64,000 nt of DNA. It comes from Meghimatium bilineatum (Eukaryota; Mollusca; Gastropoda; Stylommatophora; Philomycidae). Shown piece by piece: positions 4,540 to 61,785 of the stretch; the first letter of the stretch is position 1, and each line of letters starts with the position of its first letter. The stretch lies in assembly GCA_034231615.1 (NCBI GenBank), contig CM067299.1:15119863-15183862 (forward strand). The letters run 5' to 3'. A program made the translations under genes and the position numbers. Under the pieces are notes generated by a model. It worked only from the letters and a program-made list of their open reading frames with translations, was not told the DNA's origin and did no database searches.

Positions 4540-5056
4540 TTGATCAATATCACTAGTTTGATCAAGCTATACATGCCATTAGTGTGATCAAGCTATACAT
4601 ATCATTAATGTGATCAAGCTATACATATCATTAATGTGATCAAGCTATATATATCACTAATGTGATCAAGCTATACATATCATTAATGTGATCAAGCTAT
4701 ACATATCATTAATGTGATCAAGCTATATATATCACTAATGTGATCAAGCTATACATATCATTAATGTGATCAAGCTATATATATCACTAATGTGATCAAG
4801 CTATATATATCACTAATGTGATCAAGCTATATATATCACTAATGTGATCAAGCTATATATATCACTAATGTGATCAAGCTATATATATATCACTAATGTG
4901 ATCAAGCTATACATATCATTAATGTGATCAAGCTATATATATCACTAATGTGATCAAGCTATACATATCATTAATGTGATCAAGCTATATATATCACTAA
5001 TGTGATCAAGCTATACATATCATTAATGTGATCAAGCTATATATATATCACTAGTG
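4540..5056. repeat. Minisatellite, 26-bp unit, about 20 copies, two alternating variants
   Basis: The unit contains TGATCAAGCTATA and then either CATATCATTAATG or TATATCACTAATG. The two variants are interspersed. Two units carry an extra AT dinucleotide (28 bp). Each unit contains the palindrome TGATCA. Confidence 0.95.
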
Positions 5057-5095
5057 CCATCTGTTCTTAAATATGAATTGAGAGCTCGATGCACA

Positions 5096-5268
5096 TTACA
5101 AATACAGAAAGAAAGATTCAGACACTTGGTATGATTGCTATAGGCATCTGTTACAAATACAGAAAGAAAGATTCAGACACTTGGTATGATTGCTATAGGC
5201 GTCTGTTACAAATACAGAAAGAAAGATTCAGACACTTGGTATGATTGCTATAGGCGTCTGTTACAAAT
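5096..5268. repeat. Minisatellite, 55-bp unit, about 3 copies
   Basis: Copies start at 5096, 5151 and 5206, with a partial fourth at 5261. The unit contains TACAAATACAGAAAGAAAG and ACACTTGGTATGATTGC. The copies differ at one site (CATCTG versus CGTCTG). Confidence 0.95.
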
Positions 5269-5269
5269 G

Positions 5270-5640
5270 TTTTTTGTAGATCATTAGGTGAATGTATTTG
5301 TCTGAAATAAAATAACTGTTGACTGTGGTGAAACGTGTATGATAACCTGATATGGACAAGTAACAAGACACTCTTCACTTTCAAAGATGAGTCTAACCTG
5401 CAGTGGTTGAGAGTGAAAAGAGAAGAGGTGATACAGAAACAGTTTCCAACATAGAGAAATTATCCGAGAGTGATATTACCACAGACGCGTGGGATGCTGA
5501 GGATAAGGAAGTTTTGAGGGGTTTTTTGTTCTTTACTCCAATGTAGTCAGTCACAAGAAGAATTACAATGGCGACATTAAAACTTGCCCACATGAAACAT
5601 CTTTAGCAAGGTACAAACAGCATAGTCAAACATGCGCACT
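5270..5640. other. Unique DNA, nothing recognised
   Basis: AT-rich sequence between a minisatellite and a LINE remnant. No domain, repeat unit or splice-supported exon was identified. Confidence 0.4.
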
Positions 5641-5649
5641 ATGATTAGT

Positions 5650-6072
5650 ACATGCGTATTTGGGGTGGCAATGTAAGGCTGTGAGGCATGAACAATACAT
5701 AAAACAGTAGCACAGAGAATCACTGATTTCAAAATTAAATGCTACAGAGGAATTTTACGTATACCATGAAAAGCTAAAAAAGAAAAATCAAGAAGTGTTA
5801 AGATCAATAAACGTCGAAGAGGGTAAACATATTTTAACAAGAAAGTTGTTGTTTTTTGTCATATAAACGGACAATACAGCATGGAAATATTAATAGTTGA
5901 AGGCAGAATAAACGGCAACAGGCGAAGAGGGCGCCCAAGACGACGATGGTGCAGCGATATATCAAATTGTTTAAACATGTCTCTAACAGCGGCAGGTCAG
6001 CTCGATAAAAATCGCGGAGTGTTCAGAGAATCCATAAGAAAAATAACGCCGTGGAAAGAAAATGTCACATGA
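5650..6072 (+). pseudogene. Non-LTR retrotransposon RT, C-terminal remnant
   Basis: Frameshifted remains of the part downstream of the RT palm. A CEAWTIH stretch matches the usual YGSETW-type motif. It is followed by a region reading VLRSINVEE and then an open tail of 63 codons (5881-6072) with NRRRGRPRRRWCSDI, LTAAGQL and DKNRGVFRES. The G-R-P-R-R-R-W-x-x-D-I signature with a following AGQLxxxRxxxR is the standard C-terminus of animal RTE-like or related LINE ORF2 proteins. Several stops and frame changes upstream make it non-functional. The 52-bp array starts within a few bases of its stop codon. The clade is not certain. Confidence 0.8.
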
Positions 6073-9000
6073 TGATGAACTCAAATGTGGCTCTCCTACA
6101 ACCCTCACTGGTTACTGGTTTCATAACTTGTCTCCAATGTGGCATTCCTACAACCCTCACTGGTTACTGGTTTCATAACTTGTCTCCAATGTGGCATTCC
6201 TACAACCCTCACTGGTTACTGGTTTCATAACTTGTCTCCAATGTGGCACTCCTACAACCCTCACTGGTTACTGGTTTCATAACTTGTCTCCAATGTGGCA
6301 TTCCTACAACTCTCACTGGTTACTGCTTTCATAACTTGTCTCCAATGTGGCATTCCTACAACCCTCACTGGTTACTGCTTTCATAACTTGTCTCAAATGT
6401 GGCACTCCTACAACCCTAACTGGTTACTGTTTTCATAACTTGTCTCCAATGTGGCATTCCTACAACCCTCACTAGTTACTGTTTTCATAACTTGTCTCCA
6501 ATGTGGCACTCCTACAACCCTAACTGGTTACTGTTTTCATTACTTGTCTCCAATGTGGCATTCCTACAACCCTCACTGGTTACTGTTTTCATAACTTGTC
6601 TCAAATGTGGCTCTCCTACAACCCTAACTGGTTACTGTTTTCATAACTTGTCTCCAATGTGGCATTCCTACAATCCTCACTAGTTACTGTTTTCATAACT
6701 TGTCTCCAATGTGGCACTCCTACAACCCTAACTGGTTACTGTTTTCATAACTTGTCTCCAATGTGGCACTCCTACAACCCTAACTGGTTACTGTTTTCAT
6801 AACTTGTCTCCAATGTGGCACTCCTACAACCCTAACTGGTTACTGTTTGCATTACTTGTCTCCAATGTGGCACTCCTACAACCCTAACTGGTTACTGTTT
6901 TCATAACTTGTCTCCAATGTGTCACTCCTACAACCCTAACTGGTTACTGTTTGCATTACTTGTCTCCAATGTGTCACTCCTACAACCCTAACTGGTTACT
7001 GTTTTCATTACTTGTCTCCAATGTGGCATTCCTACAACCCTAACTGGTTACTGTTTTCATTACTTGTCTCCAATGTGGCATTCCTACAACCCTAACTGGT
7101 TACTGTTTTCATAACTTGTCTCCAATGTGGCACTCCTACAACCCTAACTGGTTACTGTTTTCATAACTTGTCTCCAATGTGGCACTCCTACAACCCTAAC
7201 TGGTTACTGTTTTCATAACTTGTCTCCAATGTGGCACTCCTACAACCCTCACTGGTTACTGTTTTCATAACTTGTCTCCAATGTGGCACTCCTACAACCC
7301 TCACTGGTTACTGTTTTCATAACTTGTCTCCAATGTGGCACTCCTACAACCCTAACTGGTTACTGTTTTCATAACTTGTCTCCAATGTGGCACTCCTACA
7401 ACCCTAACTGGTTACTGTTTTCATAACTTGTCTCCAATGTGGCACTCCTACAACCCTAACTGGTTACTGTTTTTATAACTTGTCTCCAATGTGGCACTCC
7501 TACAACCCTAACTGGTTACTGCTTTCATAACTTGTCTCCAATGTGGCACTCCTACAACCCTAACTGGTTACTGCTTTCATAACTTGTCTCCAATGTGGCA
7601 CTCCTACAACCCTAACTGGTTACTGTTTTCATAACTTGTCTCCAATGTGGCACTCCTACAACCCTAACTGGTTACTGTTTTCATTACTTGTCTCCAATGT
7701 GTCACTCCTACAACCCTAACTCGTTACTGTTTTCATAACTTGTCTCCAATGTGGCACTCCTACAACCCTAACTGGTTACTGTTTTCATAACTTGTCTCCA
7801 ATGTGGCACTCCTACAACCCTAACTGGTTACTGTTTTCATAACTTGTCTCCAATGTGGCACTCCTACAACCCTAACTGGTTACTGCTTTCATTACTTGTC
7901 TCCAATGTGTCACTCCTACAACCCTAACTGGTTACTGCTTTCATAACTTGTCTCCAATGTGGCACTCCTACAACCCTAACTGGTTACTGCTTTCATTACT
8001 TGTCTCCAATGTGTCACTCCTACAACCCTAACTGGTTACTGCTTTCATAACTTGTCTCCAATGTGGCACTCCTACAACCCTAACTGGTTACTGCTTTCAT
8101 TACTTGTCTCCAATGTGTCACTCCTACAACCCTAACTGGTTACTGCTTTCATTACTTGTCTCCAATGTGTCACTCCTGCAACCCTAACTGGTTACTGTTT
8201 TCAGAACTTGTCTCCAATGTGGCACTCCTACAACCCTAACTGGTTACTGCTTTCATTACTTGTCTCCAATGTGTCACTCCTACAACCCTAACTGGTTACT
8301 GCTTTCATAACTTGTCTCCAATGTGGCACTCCTACAACCCTAACTGGTTACTGTTTGCATTACTTGTCTCCAATGTGGCATTCCTACAACCCTAACTGGT
8401 TACTGTTTGCATTACTTGTCTCCAATGTGGCATTCCTACAACCCTAACTGGTTACTGTTTGCATTACTTGTCTCCAATGTGGCATTCCTACAACCCTAAC
8501 TGGTTACTGTTTGCATTACTTGTCTCAAATGTGGCATTCCTACAACCCTAACTGGTTACTGTTTGCATTACTTGTCTCCAATGTGGCATTCCTACAACCC
8601 TAACTGGTTACTGTTTGCATTACTTGTCTCCAATGTGGCATTCCTACAACCCTAACTGGTTACTGTTTGCATTACTTGTCTCCAATGTGGCATTCCTACA
8701 ACCCTAACTGGTTACTGGTTGCATTACTTGTCTCCAATGTGGCATTCCTACAACCCTAACTGGTTACTGTTTGCATTACTTGTCTCCAATGTGGCATTCC
8801 TACAACCCTAACTGGTTACTGTTTGCATTACTTGTCTCCAATGTGGCATTCCTACAACCCTAACTGGTTACTGTTTTCATAACTTGTCTCCAATGTGGCA
8901 TTCCTACAACCCTAACTGGTTACTGTTTTCATAACTTGTCTCCAATGTGGCACTCCTACAACCCTAACTGGTTACTGTTTGCATTACTTGTCTCCAATGT

Positions 9001-10809
9001 GGCACTCCTACAACCCTAACTGGTTACTGTTTGCATTACTTGTCTCCAATGTGGCACTCCTACAACCCTAACTGGTTACTGTTTGCATTACTTGTCTCCA
9101 ATGTGGCACTCCTACAACCCTAACTGGTTACTGTTTGCATTACTTGTCTCCAATGTGGCACTCCTACAACCCTAACTGGTTACTGTTTGCATTACTTGTC
9201 TCCAATGTGGCACTCCTACAACCCTAACTGGTTACTGTTTGCATTACTTGTCTCCAATGTGGCACTCCTACAACCCTAACTGGTTACTGTTTGCATTACT
9301 TGTCTCCAATGTGGCACTCCTACAACCCTAACTGGTTACTGTTTGCATTACTTGTCTCCAATGTGGCACTCCTACAACCCTAACTGGTTACTGTTTGCAT
9401 TACTTGTCTCCAATGTGGCTCTCCTACAACCCTCACTGGTTACTGTTTGCATTACTTGTCTCCAATGTGGCATTCCTACAACCCTCACTGGTTACTGTTT
9501 GCATTACTTGTCTCCAATGTGGCATTCCTACAACCCTCACTGGTTACTGTTTTCATTACTTGTCTCCAATGTGTCACTCCTACAACCCTCACTGGTTACA
9601 GTTTTCATTACTTGTCTCCAATGTGTCATTCCTACAACCCTAACTGGTTACTGTTTTCATTACTTGTCTCCAATGTGTCACTCCTACAACCCTCACTGGT
9701 TACTGTTTTCATTACTTGTCTCCAATGTGTCACTCCTACAACCCTCACTGGTTACTGTTTTCATTACTTGTCTCCAATGTGTCACTCCTACAACCCTCAC
9801 TGGTTACTGTTTTCATTACTTGTCTCCAATGTGTCACTCCTACAACCCTCACTGGTTACTGTTTTCATTACTTGTCTCCAATGTGTCACTCCTACAACCC
9901 TCACTGGTTACTGTTTTCATAACTTGTCTCCAATGTGGCATTCCTACAACCCTAACTGGTTACTGTTTTCATAACTTGTCTCCAATGTGGCATTCCTACA
10001 ACCCTAACTGGTTACTGTTTTCATAACTTGTCTCCAATGTGTCACTCCTACAACCCTAACTGGTTACTGTTTTCATAACTTGTCTCCAATGTGTCACTCC
10101 TACAACCCTAACTGGTTACTGTTTTCATAACTTGTCTCCAATGTGTCACTCCTACAACCCTAACTGGTTACTGTTTTCATAACTTGTCTCCAATGTGTCA
10201 CTCCTACAACCCTAACTGGTTACTGTTTTCATAACTTGTCTCCAATGTGTCACTCCTACAACCCTAACTGGTTACTGTTTTCATAACTTGTCTCCAATGT
10301 GTCACTCCTACAACCCTAACTGGTTACTGTTTTCATAACTTGTCTCCAATGTGGCACTCCTACAACCCTAACTGGTTACTGTTTTCATAACTTGTCTCCA
10401 ATGTGTCACTCCTACAACCCTAACTGGTTACTGGTTTCATTACTTGTCTCCAATGTGTCACTCCTACAACCCTAACTGGTTACTGTTTTCATAACTTGTC
10501 TCCAATGTGGCACTCCTACAACCCTAACTGGTTACTGTTTTCATAACTTGTCTCCAATGTGGCACTCCTACAACCCTCACTGGTTACTGCTTTCATTACT
10601 TGTCTCCAATGTGGCATTCCTACAACCCTAACTGGTTACTGTTTTCATTACTTGTCTCCAATGTGTCACTTCTACAAACCTAACTGGTTACTGTTTTCAT
10701 TACTTGTCTCCAATGTGGCACTCCTACAACCCTAACTGGTTACTGTTTTCATAACTTGTCTCCGATGTGTCACTCCTACAACCCTAACTGGTTACTGTTT
10801 TCATAACTT

Positions 10810-11524
10810 GTCTCCGATGTGTCACTCCTACAACCCTAACTGGTTACTGTTTTCATAACTTGTCTACGATGTGTCACTCCTACAGCCCTAACTGGTTACT
10901 GTTTTCATAACTTGTCTCCGATGTGTCACTCCTACAACCCTAACTGGTTACTGTTTTCATAACTTGTCTCCAATGTGGCATTCCTACAACCCTCACTGGT
11001 TACTGTTTTCATAACTTGTCTCCAATGTGGCATTCCTACAACCCTCACTGGTTACTGTTTTCATAACTTGTCTCCAATGTGGCATTCCTACAACCCTAAC
11101 TGGTTACTGCTTTCATAACTTGTCTCCAATGTGGCATTCCTACAACCCTAACTGGTTACTGCTTTCATAACTTGTCTCCGATGTGTCACTCCTACAACCC
11201 TAACTGGTTACTGTTTTCATAACTTGTCTCCGATGTGTCACTCCTACAACCCTAACTGGTTACTGTTTTCATAACTTGTCTCCGATGTGTCACTCCTACA
11301 ACCCTAACTGGTTACTGTTTTCATAACTTGTCTCCAATGTGACATTCCTACAACCCTCACTGGTTACTGTTTTCATAACTTGTCTCCAATGTGGCATTCC
11401 TACAACCCTCACTGGTTACTGTTTTCATAACTTGTCTCCAATGTGGCATTCCTACAACCCTAACTGGTTACTGCTTTCATAACTTGTCTCCAATGTGGCA
11501 TTCCTACAACCCTAACTGGTTACT
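10810..11524. repeat. Higher-order duplication of 7 units (364 bp) inside the 52-bp array
   Basis: The order of variants in about 10810-11160 (CCGATG units, two GGCATT/CCTCAC units, then CTTTCATA units) is repeated at about 11174-11524, an offset of 364 bp or exactly 7 units. Small differences exist (GTGGCATT versus GTGACATT; a CTACGATG unit in the first copy). Confidence 0.8.
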
Positions 11525-11639
11525 GCTTTCATTACTTGTCTCCAATGTGGCATTCCTACAACCCTAACTGGTTACTGCTTTCATAACTTGTCTCCAATGT
11601 GGCACTCCTACAACCCTAACTGGTTACTGTTTTCATAAC

Positions 11640-14020
11640 TTGTCTCCAATGTGGCATTCCTACAACCCTAACTGGTTACTGTTTTCATTACTTGTCTCCA
11701 ATGTGCCACTTCTACAACCCTAACTGGTTACTGTTTTCATAACTTGTCTCCAATGTGGCACTCCTACAACCCTCACTGGTTACTGGTTTCATTACTTGTC
11801 TCCAATGTGTCATTCCTACAACCCTAACTGGTTACTGCTTTCATTACTTGTCTCCAATGTGGCATTCCTACAACCCTAACTGGTTACTGTTTTCATTGCT
11901 TGTCTCCAATGTGCCACTTCTACAACCCTAACTGGTTACTGTTTTCATTGCTTGTCTCCAATGTGGCATTCCTACAACCCTCACTGGTTACTGTTTGCAT
12001 TACTTGTCTCCAATGTGTCACTTCTACAACCCTAACTGGTTACTGTTTGCATTACTTGTCTCCAATGTGGCTCTCCTACAACCCTAACTGGTTACTGTTT
12101 TCATTACTTGTCTCCAATGTGGCATTCCTACAACCCTCACTGGTTACTGCTTTCATTACTTGTCTCCAATGTGGCACTCCTACAACCCTAACTGGTTACT
12201 GTTTTCATAACTTGTCTCCAATGTGTCACTCCTACAACCCTAACTGGTTACTGTTTTCATAACTTGTCTCCAATGTGTCACTCCTACAACCCTCACTGGT
12301 TACTGCTTTCATTACTTGTCTCCAATGTGGCACTCCTACAACCCTAACTGGTTACTGTTTGCATTACTTGTCTCCAATGTGTCACTTCTACAAACCTAAC
12401 TGGTTACTGTTTTCATAACTTGTCTCCAATGTGGCATTCCTACAACCCTAACTGGTTACTGCTTTCATTACTTTTCTCCAATGTGGCACTCCTACAACCC
12501 TAACTGGTTACTGTTTGCATTACTTGTCTCCAATGTGTCACTCCTACAACCCTAACTGGTTACTGTTTTCATAACTTGTCTCCAATGTGGCATTCCTACA
12601 ACCCTAACTGGTTACTGTTTGCATTACTTGTCTCAAATGTGTCACTCCTACAACCCTAACTGGTTACTGTTTTCATAACTTGTCTCCAATGTGGCATTCC
12701 TACAACCCTAACTGGTTACTGTTTTCATAACTTGTCTCCAATGTGGCATTCCTACAACCCTAACTGGTTACTGTTTTCATTACTTGTCTCCAATGTGGCA
12801 CTCCTACAACCCTCACTAGATACTGTTTTCATTACTTGTCTCCAATGTGGCATTCCTACAACCCTAACTGGTTACTGTTTTCATTACTTGTCTCCAATGT
12901 GGCATTCCTACAACCCTCACTGGTTACTGTTTTCATAACTTGTCTCCAATGTGGCATTCCTACAACCCTAACTGGTTACTGTTTTCATTACTTGTCTCCA
13001 ATGTGCCACTTCTACAACCCTAACTGGTTACTGTTTTCATAACTTGTCTCCAATGTGGCACTCCTACAACCCTCACTGGTTACTGGTTTCATTACTTGTC
13101 TCCAATGTGTCATTCCTACAACCCTAACTGGTTACTGCTTTCATTACTTGTCTCCAATGTGGCATTCCTACAACCCTAACTGGTTACTGTTTTCATTGCT
13201 TGTCTCCAATGTGCCACTTCTACAACCCTAACTGGTTACTGTTTTCATTGCTTGTCTCCAATGTGGCATTCCTACAACCCTCACTGGTTACTGTTTGCAT
13301 TACTTGTCTCCAATGTGTCACTTCTACAACCCTAACTGGTTACTGTTTGCATTACTTGTCTCCAATGTGGCTCTCCTACAACCCTAACTGGTTACTGTTT
13401 TCATTACTTGTCTCCAATGTGGCATTCCTACAACCCTCACTGGTTACTGCTTTCATTACTTGTCTCCAATGTGGCACTCCTACAACCCTAACTGGTTACT
13501 GTTTTCATAACTTGTCTCCAATGTGTCACTCCTACAACCCTAACTGGTTACTGTTTTCATAACTTGTCTCCAATGTGTCACTCCTACAACCCTCACTGGT
13601 TACTGCTTTCATTACTTGTCTCCAATGTGGCACTCCTACAACCCTAACTGGTTACTGTTTGCATTACTTGTCTCCAATGTGTCACTTCTACAAACCTAAC
13701 TGGTTACTGTTTTCATAACTTGTCTCCAATGTGGCATTCCTACAACCCTAACTGGTTACTGCTTTCATTACTTGTCTCCAATTTGGCACTCCTACAACCC
13801 TAACTGGTTACTGTTTGCATTACTTGTCTCCAATGTGTCACTCCTACAACCCTAACTGGTTACTGTTTTCATAACTTGTCTCCAATGTGGCATTCCTACA
13901 ACCCTAACTGGTTACTGTTTGCATTACTTGTCTCCAATGTGTCACTCCTACAACCCTAACTGGTTACTGTTTTCATAACTTGTCTCCAATGTGGCATTCC
14001 TACAACCCTAACTGGTTACT
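11640..14020. repeat. Higher-order tandem duplication, 25 units (1,300-bp offset)
   Basis: Positions 11640-12720 match 12940-14020 at a constant 1,300-bp offset (25 x 52). Line-by-line comparison shows only about three substitutions over roughly 1,080 bp, near 12474, 12483 and 12635. The match breaks down on both sides. Rare unit variants (TTTTCATTGCTT, GTGCCACTTC, CACTTCTACAAACC) occur in the same order in both copies, so this is one recent block duplication. Confidence 0.93.
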
Positions 14021-14514
14021 GTTTGCATTACTTGTCTCCAATGTGTCACTTCTACAAACCTAACTGGTTACTGGTTTCATTACCTGTCTCCAATGCGGCA
14101 CTCCAACAACCCTAACTGGTTACTGTTTTCATTAATTGTCTCCATTGTGCCAGTTCTACAACCCTAACTGGTTATTGTTTTCATTACTTGTCTCCAATGT
14201 GCCACTTCTACAACCCTAACTGGTTACTGTTTTCATTGCTTGTCTCCAATGTGGCACTCATACAACCCTAACTGGTTACTGCTTTAATTATTACCACTAT
14301 TGTTTTTATATTACCCATACTTGAGAAAATGTCACTATCTGAACGTATTAATAACAGACGAGACAGAGTTGTGGAGAAACATGGTCGCCTATCCACTCGG
14401 CATAATACTCAATTGATTGGTATTTGACGTAGACTTTATAAATATATAAAATTGAAGAAATATTCATGCGATGTAGCTGTTGTTCCCTGTTGACTTCTTT
14501 ACGCGCGGTTTTAT

Positions 14515-14772
14515 TTTTCACTATTAAAAGAGAATTGAAACTATATTAACATCTAAACAAATTACAAATAAGCTAAAAATTGAGAATTGCAAAAATACTA
14601 CATCTATTCTATATTAATGTATGGTTCAGAAACATGGACAATAAACAAATAATTAGAAGACAGAATTGATGCCTTTGGGATATATAGGAGAACATATTGG
14701 AAGGAGAAGAAAACAAAGAGGTTCTAGCACCACAATATGAAAACAAAGAACTATTAAAGGAAATAAAGATCA
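14515..14772 (+). pseudogene. LINE RT remnant, 5' part of an interrupted plus-strand copy
   Basis: One frame reads YSILMYGSETWTINKQ and then DAFGIYRRTYW-type residues. YGSETW is the classic motif after the RT palm in many non-LTR elements. It runs on to KEVLAPQYENKELLKEIK and then stops abruptly where minus-strand LINE sequence begins. Its continuation resumes at about 15551 (see the separate entry). Stops and frame changes are present. Confidence 0.7.
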
Positions 14773-15435
14773 TCATCAAGTGCCGTCTCCGCAACGAAGG
14801 TTGGCTGCAACAGGCCTCTAACATCCCCTATCTCTTGTATTGATGGTGCACTCTGCTATACTGTAACCTGTCCAGCTTGTGATGTTATTCCCAATTGTAT
14901 CTCTGTCTACCTCTTGCTCGCCTCCCTTTGACTCTACCCTCATGTAAGGTCTTCAACAAGATCTTTTAAGGTGTCCAAAAGATTTCATTTGCGTGATCTT
15001 TATTTCTCTTAGTAATTCTTTCTTCATATTAAGTGATTTAGAACTTCTTTGTTTGTTTTCTTCTCTTTGCATGATATTCTCTCTATTCTTCTATATACAT
15101 ACATCTCAAAGACATAATTCTGTCTTCTAATTGTTTGTTTAGTGTCATGTTTCTGAGCCATACATTATTGTAGAATAGATGTAGCATTTTATAATTATCA
15201 TTTTTAACTTGTTTGTAATTTGTTTAGATGTTACTATTTTCCTCATGTCATTGAAGTTACTTTTAGCCATTTCTATTTTCCATTTAACGTCTGTTTCATA
15301 TCTGCCATCATTTGTGACTATTATGTCCAAGATATTAATATTTGTTGTAGTTTCTTTCCATGTATATGTATGTTTAACTCTTGTTTTTCTGTGTCTTCGC
15401 TGATTATCATGGTTTTTTATTTTTGGATATTAATA
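14773..15435 (-). pseudogene. LINE 3' part, minus strand, nested in a plus-strand relative
   Basis: Read on the minus strand from about 15435 down, it encodes TMIISEDTEKQELNI, then HGKKLQQ, VTNDGRYETDVKWKIEMAKS and IKCYIYSTIMYGSET. This order corresponds to the RT region just after the catalytic palm, followed by the YGSET motif. Further on, frames read LHEGRVKGRRARGRQRY and NLRCGDGT near the 3' end at about 14773. The plus-strand fragments on either side are the same family. The minus copy lies between two halves that would join, so it probably inserted into the plus copy or the pair formed by inversion. Frameshifts make it inactive. Confidence 0.75.
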
Positions 15436-15550
15436 TCAATAACGGCGACACAACTGGCGTTGGAACGACATCTTAAGCTCCCACCCCTACTCTTAACGGT
15501 AAGTGTGAATGCGATCAACAATCATTCACCTGGGAAAAGACAATAGACAA
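15436..15550 (+). pseudogene. LINE 3' end fragment (ATQLALERHL type)
   Basis: A short plus-strand frame reads ATQLALERHLKLPPLLLTVS, followed by NAINNHSPG. The same order occurs at 63450-63560 (ATHLTFEQQL, then LLRLTASVNTINHQSPGD) downstream of a recognisable GHKAKGRAK/RWLENIK C-terminus. This is therefore the C-terminal end plus 3' flank of that LINE family, truncated here. Confidence 0.6.
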
Positions 15551-15792
15551 TATAAATAACGATCAAGTAAACAAAATATTTTGGACACAGTAAAAGACAT
15601 GACACCTTGTTGAAGATCTTACTTGAGGGTAAAGTCGACGGAGGGGAGCAAGAGGTAGACAGAGATACAAGTGGGAGAATAGCATCACAAGATGGTCAGG
15701 TTAAAGTCTAGCAGAGTGCACCACCAAAACAAGGATAGGGGAGGTCTCTTTTGCAGCCAACCATCGTTGCGGAGACGGTACTTGAATAATAA
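15551..15792 (+). pseudogene. LINE RT remnant, 3' part of the interrupted plus-strand copy
   Basis: It resumes the family seen at 14515-14772. Frames read KIFWTQ, then RRRGARGRQRYKWENSITRW, then SLAECTTKTR and FAANHRCGDGT. It is about 200 bp homologous, in inverted orientation, to 14775-14990, so the two LINE copies form an inverted pair. It ends near TGCGGAGACGGTACTTGAAT. Confidence 0.7.
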
Positions 15793-61390: not shown

Positions 61391-61785
61391 GTGTATATAC
61401 TGGGTCTCATGGGTGAATTTACTTGTTATCATGTGTAGACACTGGGGTCTCATTGGTGAATTTACTTGTTATCATGTGTAGACACTGGGGTCTCATGGGT
61501 GAATTTACTTGTTATCATGTGTAGACACTGGGGTCTCATGGGTGAATTTACTTGTTATCATGTGTAGACACTGGGGTCTCATGGGTGAATTTACTTGTTA
61601 TCATGTGTAGACACTGGGGTCTCATGGGTGAATTTACTTGTTATCATGTGTAGACACTGGGGTCTCATTGGTGAATTTACTTGTTATCATGTGTAGACAC
61701 TGGGGTCTCATGGGTGAATTTACTTGTTATCATGTGTAGACACTGGGGTCTCATGGGTGAATTTACTTGTTATCATGTGTATATA
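61391..61785. repeat. Minisatellite, 43-bp unit, about 9 copies
   Basis: The unit reads TGGGTGAATTTACTTGTTAT, then CATGTGTAGACACTGGGGTC, then TCA. It is nearly perfect; the first and last units end in GTATATACT instead of GTAGACACT, so the edges are the diverged ends of a homogenised core. Confidence 0.98.

What the first reader, a model, noticed from the sequence alone, without database searches (positions are those of the whole stretch)
6075..14290. An 8.2-kb, about 158-copy 52-bp minisatellite starting at a LINE 3' end
The array is far larger than any other in the window and starts within bases of the stop codon of a LINE RT remnant (5881-6072). Variant units occur in blocks, showing repeated local spread by unequal exchange, replication slippage or conversion. 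The size and homogeneity are visible directly. That it was seeded from a LINE 3' UTR is inference. A locus of this size could be hypervariable and might act as a recombination, replication-pausing or chromatin element.
Basis: partly seen in the sequence, partly recalled or inferred. Interest (0 to 1): 0.7.

Follow-up and report, generated by a model that had tools for sequence, protein, structure and literature searches.

The report
Minisatellite grown from a LINE's tail
An 8.2-kb block of about 158 copies of a 52-base sequence looks like the last 52 bases of an old jumping gene copied over and over, and tails of the same family of jumping genes have started other, separate repeat blocks in this genome.

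Summary
The array is real: 6080-14290, 52-bp unit, 157.9 units, no indels, 95.7% mean identity, variants in blocks. The seeding idea is right in kind but names the wrong LINE. The adjacent LINE ("LINE A", 5547-6078) is a later intruder: the 39 other scored matches stop at window 6072-6082; 12 of 12 inspected ends lack the unit; it sits in a 10/12-bp target-site duplication; the emptied site aligns across the join with another family, "LINE B". LINE B is the parent: its body lies at 5037-5544, its last 52 bases match the unit ungapped at 40/52 (300 shuffles reach 31), and its ATT-rich tail follows the last unit. One old LINE B copy had its terminal 52 bp amplified; LINE A later hit unit 1. Genome-wide the LINE B end recurs in tandem (1,439 places; 17 loci among the first 100 listed; mainly periods 31 and 38), whereas a body word with 1,083 copies is tandem at 2 places. 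Array-bearing copies are scattered on a weakly resolved tree. What made the first duplication is open; no function was found or tested. Known kind: TE-derived minisatellite.

The parts
5037..5534 (+). Body of the parent LINE B copy (old, indel-rich), colinear with the 3' part of the LINE B family; it continues to 5544 through the 5' copy of the target-site duplication
   Evidence: nhmmer with a model from 28 LINE B copies: 5210-5544 = model 223-592, E 1.1e-15; 5037-5157 = model 158-282, E 6e-4
5096..5268 (+). Second, small minisatellite (55 bp x 3.1) inside the same LINE B copy; two of its copies align to about model 223-282
   Evidence: TRF; overlapping model ranges
5535..5546 (+). 5' copy of the target-site duplication of LINE A, inside unit 1 of the LINE B end
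   Evidence: ACTCCAATGTAG against ACTCAAATGTGG at 6079-6090, 10 of 12 identical
5547..6078 (+).
   Evidence: LINE A model hit 5550-5867, E 1.3e-46; family 3' end at 6078
6079..6090 (+). 3' copy of the target-site duplication, start of the remaining part of unit 1
6080..14290 (+). 52-bp minisatellite, 157.9 units, each matching the terminal 52 bp of LINE B (model 581-632)
11644..12683 (+). Units 108-127, first copy of the 1.3-kb (25-unit lag) internal duplication
12944..13983 (+). Units 133-152, second copy, 3 differences in 1,040 bases
14241..14322 (+). Last unit running on into an ATT-rich stretch that aligns with the LINE B tail (to about 14322)
   Evidence: nhmmer model 581-662, 26.9 bits, E 2.5e-8

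Best explanation
The array is the hugely amplified 3' terminus of an old LINE B (non-LTR retrotransposon) insertion. Shown by alignment: the unit is LINE B's last 52 bases, i.e. the end of its coding region by my reading, a short untranslated stretch and the start of its ATT tail; the LINE B body precedes the first unit and the tail follows the last. Shown: LINE A later inserted into the first unit. Inferred: after LINE B landed, its end was tandemly duplicated once, by slippage or short-homology repair or during target-primed reverse transcription; the duplication then grew by unequal exchange, slippage or conversion, which also keeps units far more alike (6% pairwise) than the surrounding LINE B body is to its relatives (71% identity at best). 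Inferred: it is a by-product without a selected function.
For: Unit against LINE B consensus 40/52 ungapped over the whole unit, at most 31 in 300 shuffles. LINE B body at 5037-5544 and tail behind the last unit; in the 64-kb window the only LINE B matches with E below 0.1 outside the array are the body and this tail. Emptied site (5481-5547 joined to 6091-6180) aligns to LINE B model 543-629 across the join with one extra base, which lies outside the duplication. The core is found single-copy at LINE B ends. 11 of 15 other arrays examined have LINE B body directly upstream on the same strand, and in 9 of 14 whose end was held the last unit runs into the ATT tail. The core is tandem at 1,439 places, reversed-pattern control 0; a body word with 1,083 copies at 2 places, a second body word at 9 places of one locus. 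Units 2 onward carry TGTCTCC (model 581-587), which LINE A cut off from unit 1, so at least two units preceded LINE A.
Against: 4 of the 15 other arrays (L016, L021, L022, L054) show no LINE B body upstream. The 14-bp linker alone matches the LINE B tail at only 8 of 14. Short direct repeats do not predict the period: mean longest repeat at spacing 52 is 1.68, below many others; 31 ranks second and 38 ties for eighth of 37 spacings. A region-matched comparison of array frequency with a body word is not significant (4/62 against 0/39, p 0.16). The small tree is poorly resolved. LINE B's clade was not determined.
Confidence: 0.9

Rival explanations
1. The array was seeded by the 3' untranslated region of the adjacent LINE (LINE A).
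For: LINE A ends within bases of the first unit.
Against: 39 of 39 other scored LINE A matches stop at window 6072-6082; 12 of 12 inspected 3' ends go from TGATGATGA (or a shorter form) into unrelated DNA without the core; the junction is a target-site duplication in LINE B sequence.
Confidence: 0.02
2. Tandem LINE B ends are born during retrotransposition itself: abortive or re-initiated target-primed reverse transcription lays down several copies of the 3' terminus at one target, which later expand. The hotspot would then be a property of the retrotransposition reaction.
For: Amplification is concentrated at the extreme 3' end, where reverse transcription starts, and is rare for two body words; periods differ between loci and array-bearing LINE B bodies are scattered on the tree; short direct repeats explain the periods poorly.
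Against: The two commonest periods, 31 and 38, recur at unrelated loci, and the 38-bp unit lacks the tail that each new round of priming should include. The LINE B body is still attached in 11 of 15 arrays, so any repeats would have to be laid down before a full extension.
Confidence: 0.2
3. A few LINE B source elements already carried tandem 3' ends (dimers) and spread them by retrotransposition; arrays then grew locally.
For: Two periods (31 and 38) account for 12 of the 17 loci in the listed part of the genome.
Against: Array-bearing copies do not cluster: 9 label changes against 10.0 in shuffles, 123 of 500 as low; three 38-bp copies are 0.69-0.76 and two 31-bp copies 0.79 identical, against 0.76 for the average pair.
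Confidence: 0.15
4. The copy number or part of it is an assembly artefact.
For: Long arrays are hard to assemble; a 1.3-kb internal duplication has only 3 differences in 1,040 bases.
Against: 61 unit types, local blocks, divergent 3' edge, and LINE B sequence on both ends are what a real old locus would show; they do not fix the exact length.
Confidence: 0.1

Closest known systems
TE-derived minisatellites of the human genome (PMC3389668, passages seen)
   Same: Minisatellites arise from pieces of transposable elements, expand by local duplication, and some element regions (in AluS and LTR12) are hotspots.
   Different: There mostly Alu and LTR elements by the passages seen; here the extreme 3' end of a LINE in an unnamed, probably invertebrate genome, with different periods at different loci.
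Satellites linked to LINE 3' regions: common cetacean satellite (L1 3' end), chicken HinfI/SCR1 (CR1 3' UTR and ORF2), Drosophila HeT-A 3' region (all as told in the review PMC9659126, passages seen)
   Same: LINE-type 3' sequence became a tandem repeat.
   Different: As reported there each is one satellite family; here many separate small arrays of different period come from one LINE end, and the 52-bp form was found at one locus only.
Tandem repeats in 3' UTRs of LTR elements (pea Ogre/PisTR-A, soybean Gmr9 minisatellite; review PMC9659126, passages seen)
   Same: The 3' region of a retrotransposon as a source of repeats.
   Different: Those elements carry variable repeats themselves; most LINE B copies seen here are single-ended (58 of 62 core loci in the listed stretch are solitary).

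Membership tests
Minisatellite | Head-to-tail units of roughly 10-100 bp, confined to a locus | tested here: met
   52 bp x 157.9; 73 of 103 genome matches of a two-unit query lie in this array, and no other full-length 121-base match with the 52-bp spacing was listed (tool counts are lower bounds)
Hypervariable minisatellite (VNTR) | Copy number differs between individuals | not testable with these tools
   one assembly only
Satellite DNA family | Same unit in long arrays at many loci or chromosomes | tested here: not met
   52-bp form found at one locus; relatives elsewhere have other periods and 73-95% identity
LINE-derived tandem repeat (parent LINE B) | Unit matches a defined part of the element | tested here: met
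   40/52 against model 581-632, shuffles at most 31
LINE-derived tandem repeat (parent LINE B) | Parent element contiguous with the array, in order and orientation | tested here: met
   body before, tail after, nested insertion removed
LINE-derived tandem repeat (parent LINE A) | Unit present at the 3' end of LINE A copies | tested here: not met
   0 of 12 inspected ends; 39 of 39 other scored matches stop at window 6072-6082
Non-LTR retrotransposon clade of LINE B | Reverse transcriptase phylogeny | not tested
   only about 660 bp of the 3' end were modelled; Pfam scan of the LINE A tail gave nothing

The most novel reading that the evidence does not exclude
The 3' terminus of one LINE family is a genome-wide minisatellite nursery, and the repeats are laid down by the retrotransposition reaction itself: reverse transcription that restarts at the tail leaves tandem 3' ends at birth, of a length set by where each start aborts, and some of these seeds then grow to kilobases.
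Probability: 0.2. Interest if true: 0.65.

Novelty: new member of a known kind. Interest (0 to 1): 0.45.

Why it matters
It gives a readable stratigraphy of how a large minisatellite was born: parent element, amplified end, later nested insertion with its target-site duplication, later internal 1.3-kb duplication. And because one LINE end has done this at many loci with few periods, it offers a natural replicate experiment on how the first tandem copy arises, which is usually lost in old arrays.

Tried and rejected
LINE A as parent: rejected. Coding role: 52 is not a multiple of 3, so the frame changes each unit; open stretches such as 9280-10026 only reflect T instead of A at unit position 46; not pursued. 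RNA families and tRNAs: none in the window at the default thresholds. Pfam on six window frames: no hit at its curated cut-off. The 26-bp array at 4547-5046 looked LINE B-like by eye but does not align (best match there E 0.18, in the flanking bases): dropped. Microhomology as the cause of the periods: only weak support, none for 52 (my first column-based attempt was misindexed and is not used). Exact count of 52-bp-spaced core pairs and the single count of the second body word: not completed. Structure prediction, prokaryote, viral, phage, plasmid and E. coli collections: not used, as unsuited to a eukaryotic repeat. Literature: eight searches; in their listings I saw no paper on LINE 3'-end minisatellites in cephalopods; most subscription papers are not held. 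Four papers were seen as passages only, none in full.

I think of a cephalopod from recalled repeat-protein tails; no call shows it.

Full report
OBSERVATION. The array is as described: 6080-14290, 52-bp period, 157.9 units, no indels. Cut in steps of 52 it gives 157 full units and a 47-base remainder; mean identity to consensus 95.7%, minimum 47/52, 61 distinct full units. Blocks of variants are far beyond chance: 34 identical neighbours against 5.3 +/- 2.2 in 2,000 shuffles. Units 108-127 and 133-152 form a 25-unit-lag duplication with 3 differences in 1,040 bases. The window is repeat-rich in general: 17,455 of 64,000 bases lie in my list of tandem repeats, 9,244 without this array.

WHERE ELSE THE UNIT IS. 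The own genome is held (1.61 Gb, 32 contigs; window = C2:15119863-15183862). A 121-base query of the array gave 103 matches: 73 in this array and 30 at 15 other places, with lower identity or different spacing (the tool calls its counts lower bounds). All 15 places were fetched. They share a core of about 38 bases, TGTCTCCAATGTGGCATTCCTACAACCCTAACTGGTTA. At several places it is single-copy, preceded by similar LINE-like sequence and often followed by an ATT-rich tail; at others it is in tandem with periods 31, 33, 38, 40, 42, 47 or 56.

THE PARENT. A 281-base query from one single-copy locus (L021) found a large family, LINE B (6,665 first-look candidates, 40 scored, 30 cut out). Its 3' ends show the core, then TGGGTCTTATTATT and an ATT tail. 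In copies that read CTACGACCCTGA the core codes, by my reading, for the last residues of the open frame and its stop. 38 core bases plus the 14 that follow make 52. The unit matches LINE B model positions 581-632 without gaps at 40 of 52; 300 shuffled units, tried in all rotations along the model, reach at most 31. The 14-base linker alone matches 8 of 14, so the tail part is supported mainly by the exact length and position. A model from 28 copies (of the 30 cut out; the query locus and its duplicate left out) finds the body of a LINE B copy at 5210-5544 (E 1.1e-15, model 223-592) and 5037-5157 (model 158-282), unit 1 at 6081-6124 (from model 585), and the last unit running into the ATT-rich tail at 14241-14322. 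In the window no other place outside the array reaches E below 0.1. The 55-bp minisatellite at 5096-5268 lies inside the same LINE B copy.

THE INTRUDER. The LINE next to the array, LINE A, is a different family (4,141 candidates, 40 scored). Apart from the window copy itself, the 39 matches stop at query base 233-243, mostly 239, which is window 6078. Of 12 copies (of those 39) fetched at the 3' end, 12 run from ...CACATGATGATGA or a shorter form into unrelated DNA, and none has the core in the 120 bases that follow. A model of its upstream part matches 5550-5867 at E 1.3e-46. ACTCCAATGTAG (5535-5546) and ACTCAAATGTGG (6079-6090) flank it: a target-site duplication, 10 of 12 identical, in LINE B sequence. 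Joining the flanks gives a continuous match to LINE B model 543-629 with one extra base, which lies outside the duplication. LINE A is old: 15 of 101 terminal bases differ from its family consensus, against 2-10 in the 12 others. Units 2 onward carry TGTCTCC (model 581-587), which LINE A separated from unit 1, so at least two units existed before LINE A arrived (inference).

RECURRENCE. Two core words 30-60 bases apart occur at 905 + 534 = 1,439 places, reversed-pattern control 0. The listing shows only the first 100; these fall in 17 loci on C1 and the first 15 Mb of C2: seven with period 31 (one with 32 as well), five with 38, and one each with 37, 48, 49, 52 (this window) and 56. The single core word occurs 4,061 times, reversed control 18; its first 100 places form 62 loci on C1, 4 of them arrays and 58 solitary. 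As controls, a LINE B body word occurs 1,083 times and in tandem at 2 places; a second body word is in tandem at 9 places of one locus (its single count did not complete). 4/62 against 2/1,083 gives p 1e-4, but the region-matched 4/62 against 0/39 is not significant (p 0.16); the stronger contrast is 17 core loci in a small part of the genome against 2 and 1 loci in all of it. Of 15 distinct arrays other than the window's (23 loci given to the call, of 45 array or core loci held; the 22 left out are further hits inside the same arrays; 3 of the 23 repeat an array and 5 have a single core), 11 have LINE B body directly upstream on the same strand, and 4 do not (L016, L021, L022, L054). In 9 of 14 whose end was held, the last unit runs on into the tail (model 636 or beyond).

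INDEPENDENT OR INHERITED? On a tree of 49 LINE B body pieces the 11 array-bearing rows need 9 changes (shuffles 10.0 on average, 123 of 500 as low); the three 38-bp rows are 0.69-0.76 and the two 31-bp rows 0.79 identical, against 0.76 for the average pair. This fits independent origins; 36 of 46 inner branches are drawn open, so it is not proof.

MECHANISM. Shown: parent, position, order of events. Inferred: how the first duplication arose. Short direct repeats do not settle it: over 28 copies spacing 31 ranks second and 38 ties for eighth of 37, and 52 is low (1.68 against 2.61 for the best). Growth and homogenisation by unequal exchange, slippage or conversion fit the blocks and the contrast between 6% mean unit difference and at best 71% identity of the surrounding LINE B body to its relatives. 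No function was found; none was testable.

COMPARISON. Minisatellites from transposable elements are well known (7,276 in human, 23% of those analysed; PMC3389668, passages), as are satellites from LINE 3' regions (review PMC9659126, passages). This is a new member of that kind, with an unusually complete history and many sister loci.

Noticed in passing
window 1-64000: About 27% of the window (17,455 bases in my merged list of TRF rows) is tandem repeat, mostly 20-55 bp units; minisatellites are common here.
   Followed up: partly
window 5096-5268: A 55-bp x 3.1 array lies within the same LINE B copy, so one insertion gave rise to two minisatellites.
   Followed up: partly
G000 C23:83842317-83842737: A 45-bp array made from the LINE B body, the single locus found for that body word.
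   Followed up: no
G000 C1:94991724-95096008: The LINE B body word recurs five times at spacings of about 26.05-26.08 kb, suggesting a 26-kb segment in tandem (listing).
   Followed up: no
L021 and L022 (C19, about 41 kb apart): A duplicated segment 98-99% identical over long stretches, whose inverted 40-bp LINE B-derived arrays differ in length (7.8 and 17.0 copies by TRF): a possible natural case of recent array change.
   Followed up: no
window 14543-15785: Two pairs of inverted LINE-like fragments, 78-81% identical, just beyond the array.
   Followed up: no
window 61391-61781 and 62517-62055: A 43-bp x 9.1 array lies downstream of a LINE A relative on the minus strand; whether it is linked to that LINE's end was not tested.
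   Followed up: no
L036, L039, L041, L045, L048, L053: Six of 28 LINE B copies lack three bases just before the core (gap), perhaps a subfamily mark.
   Followed up: no
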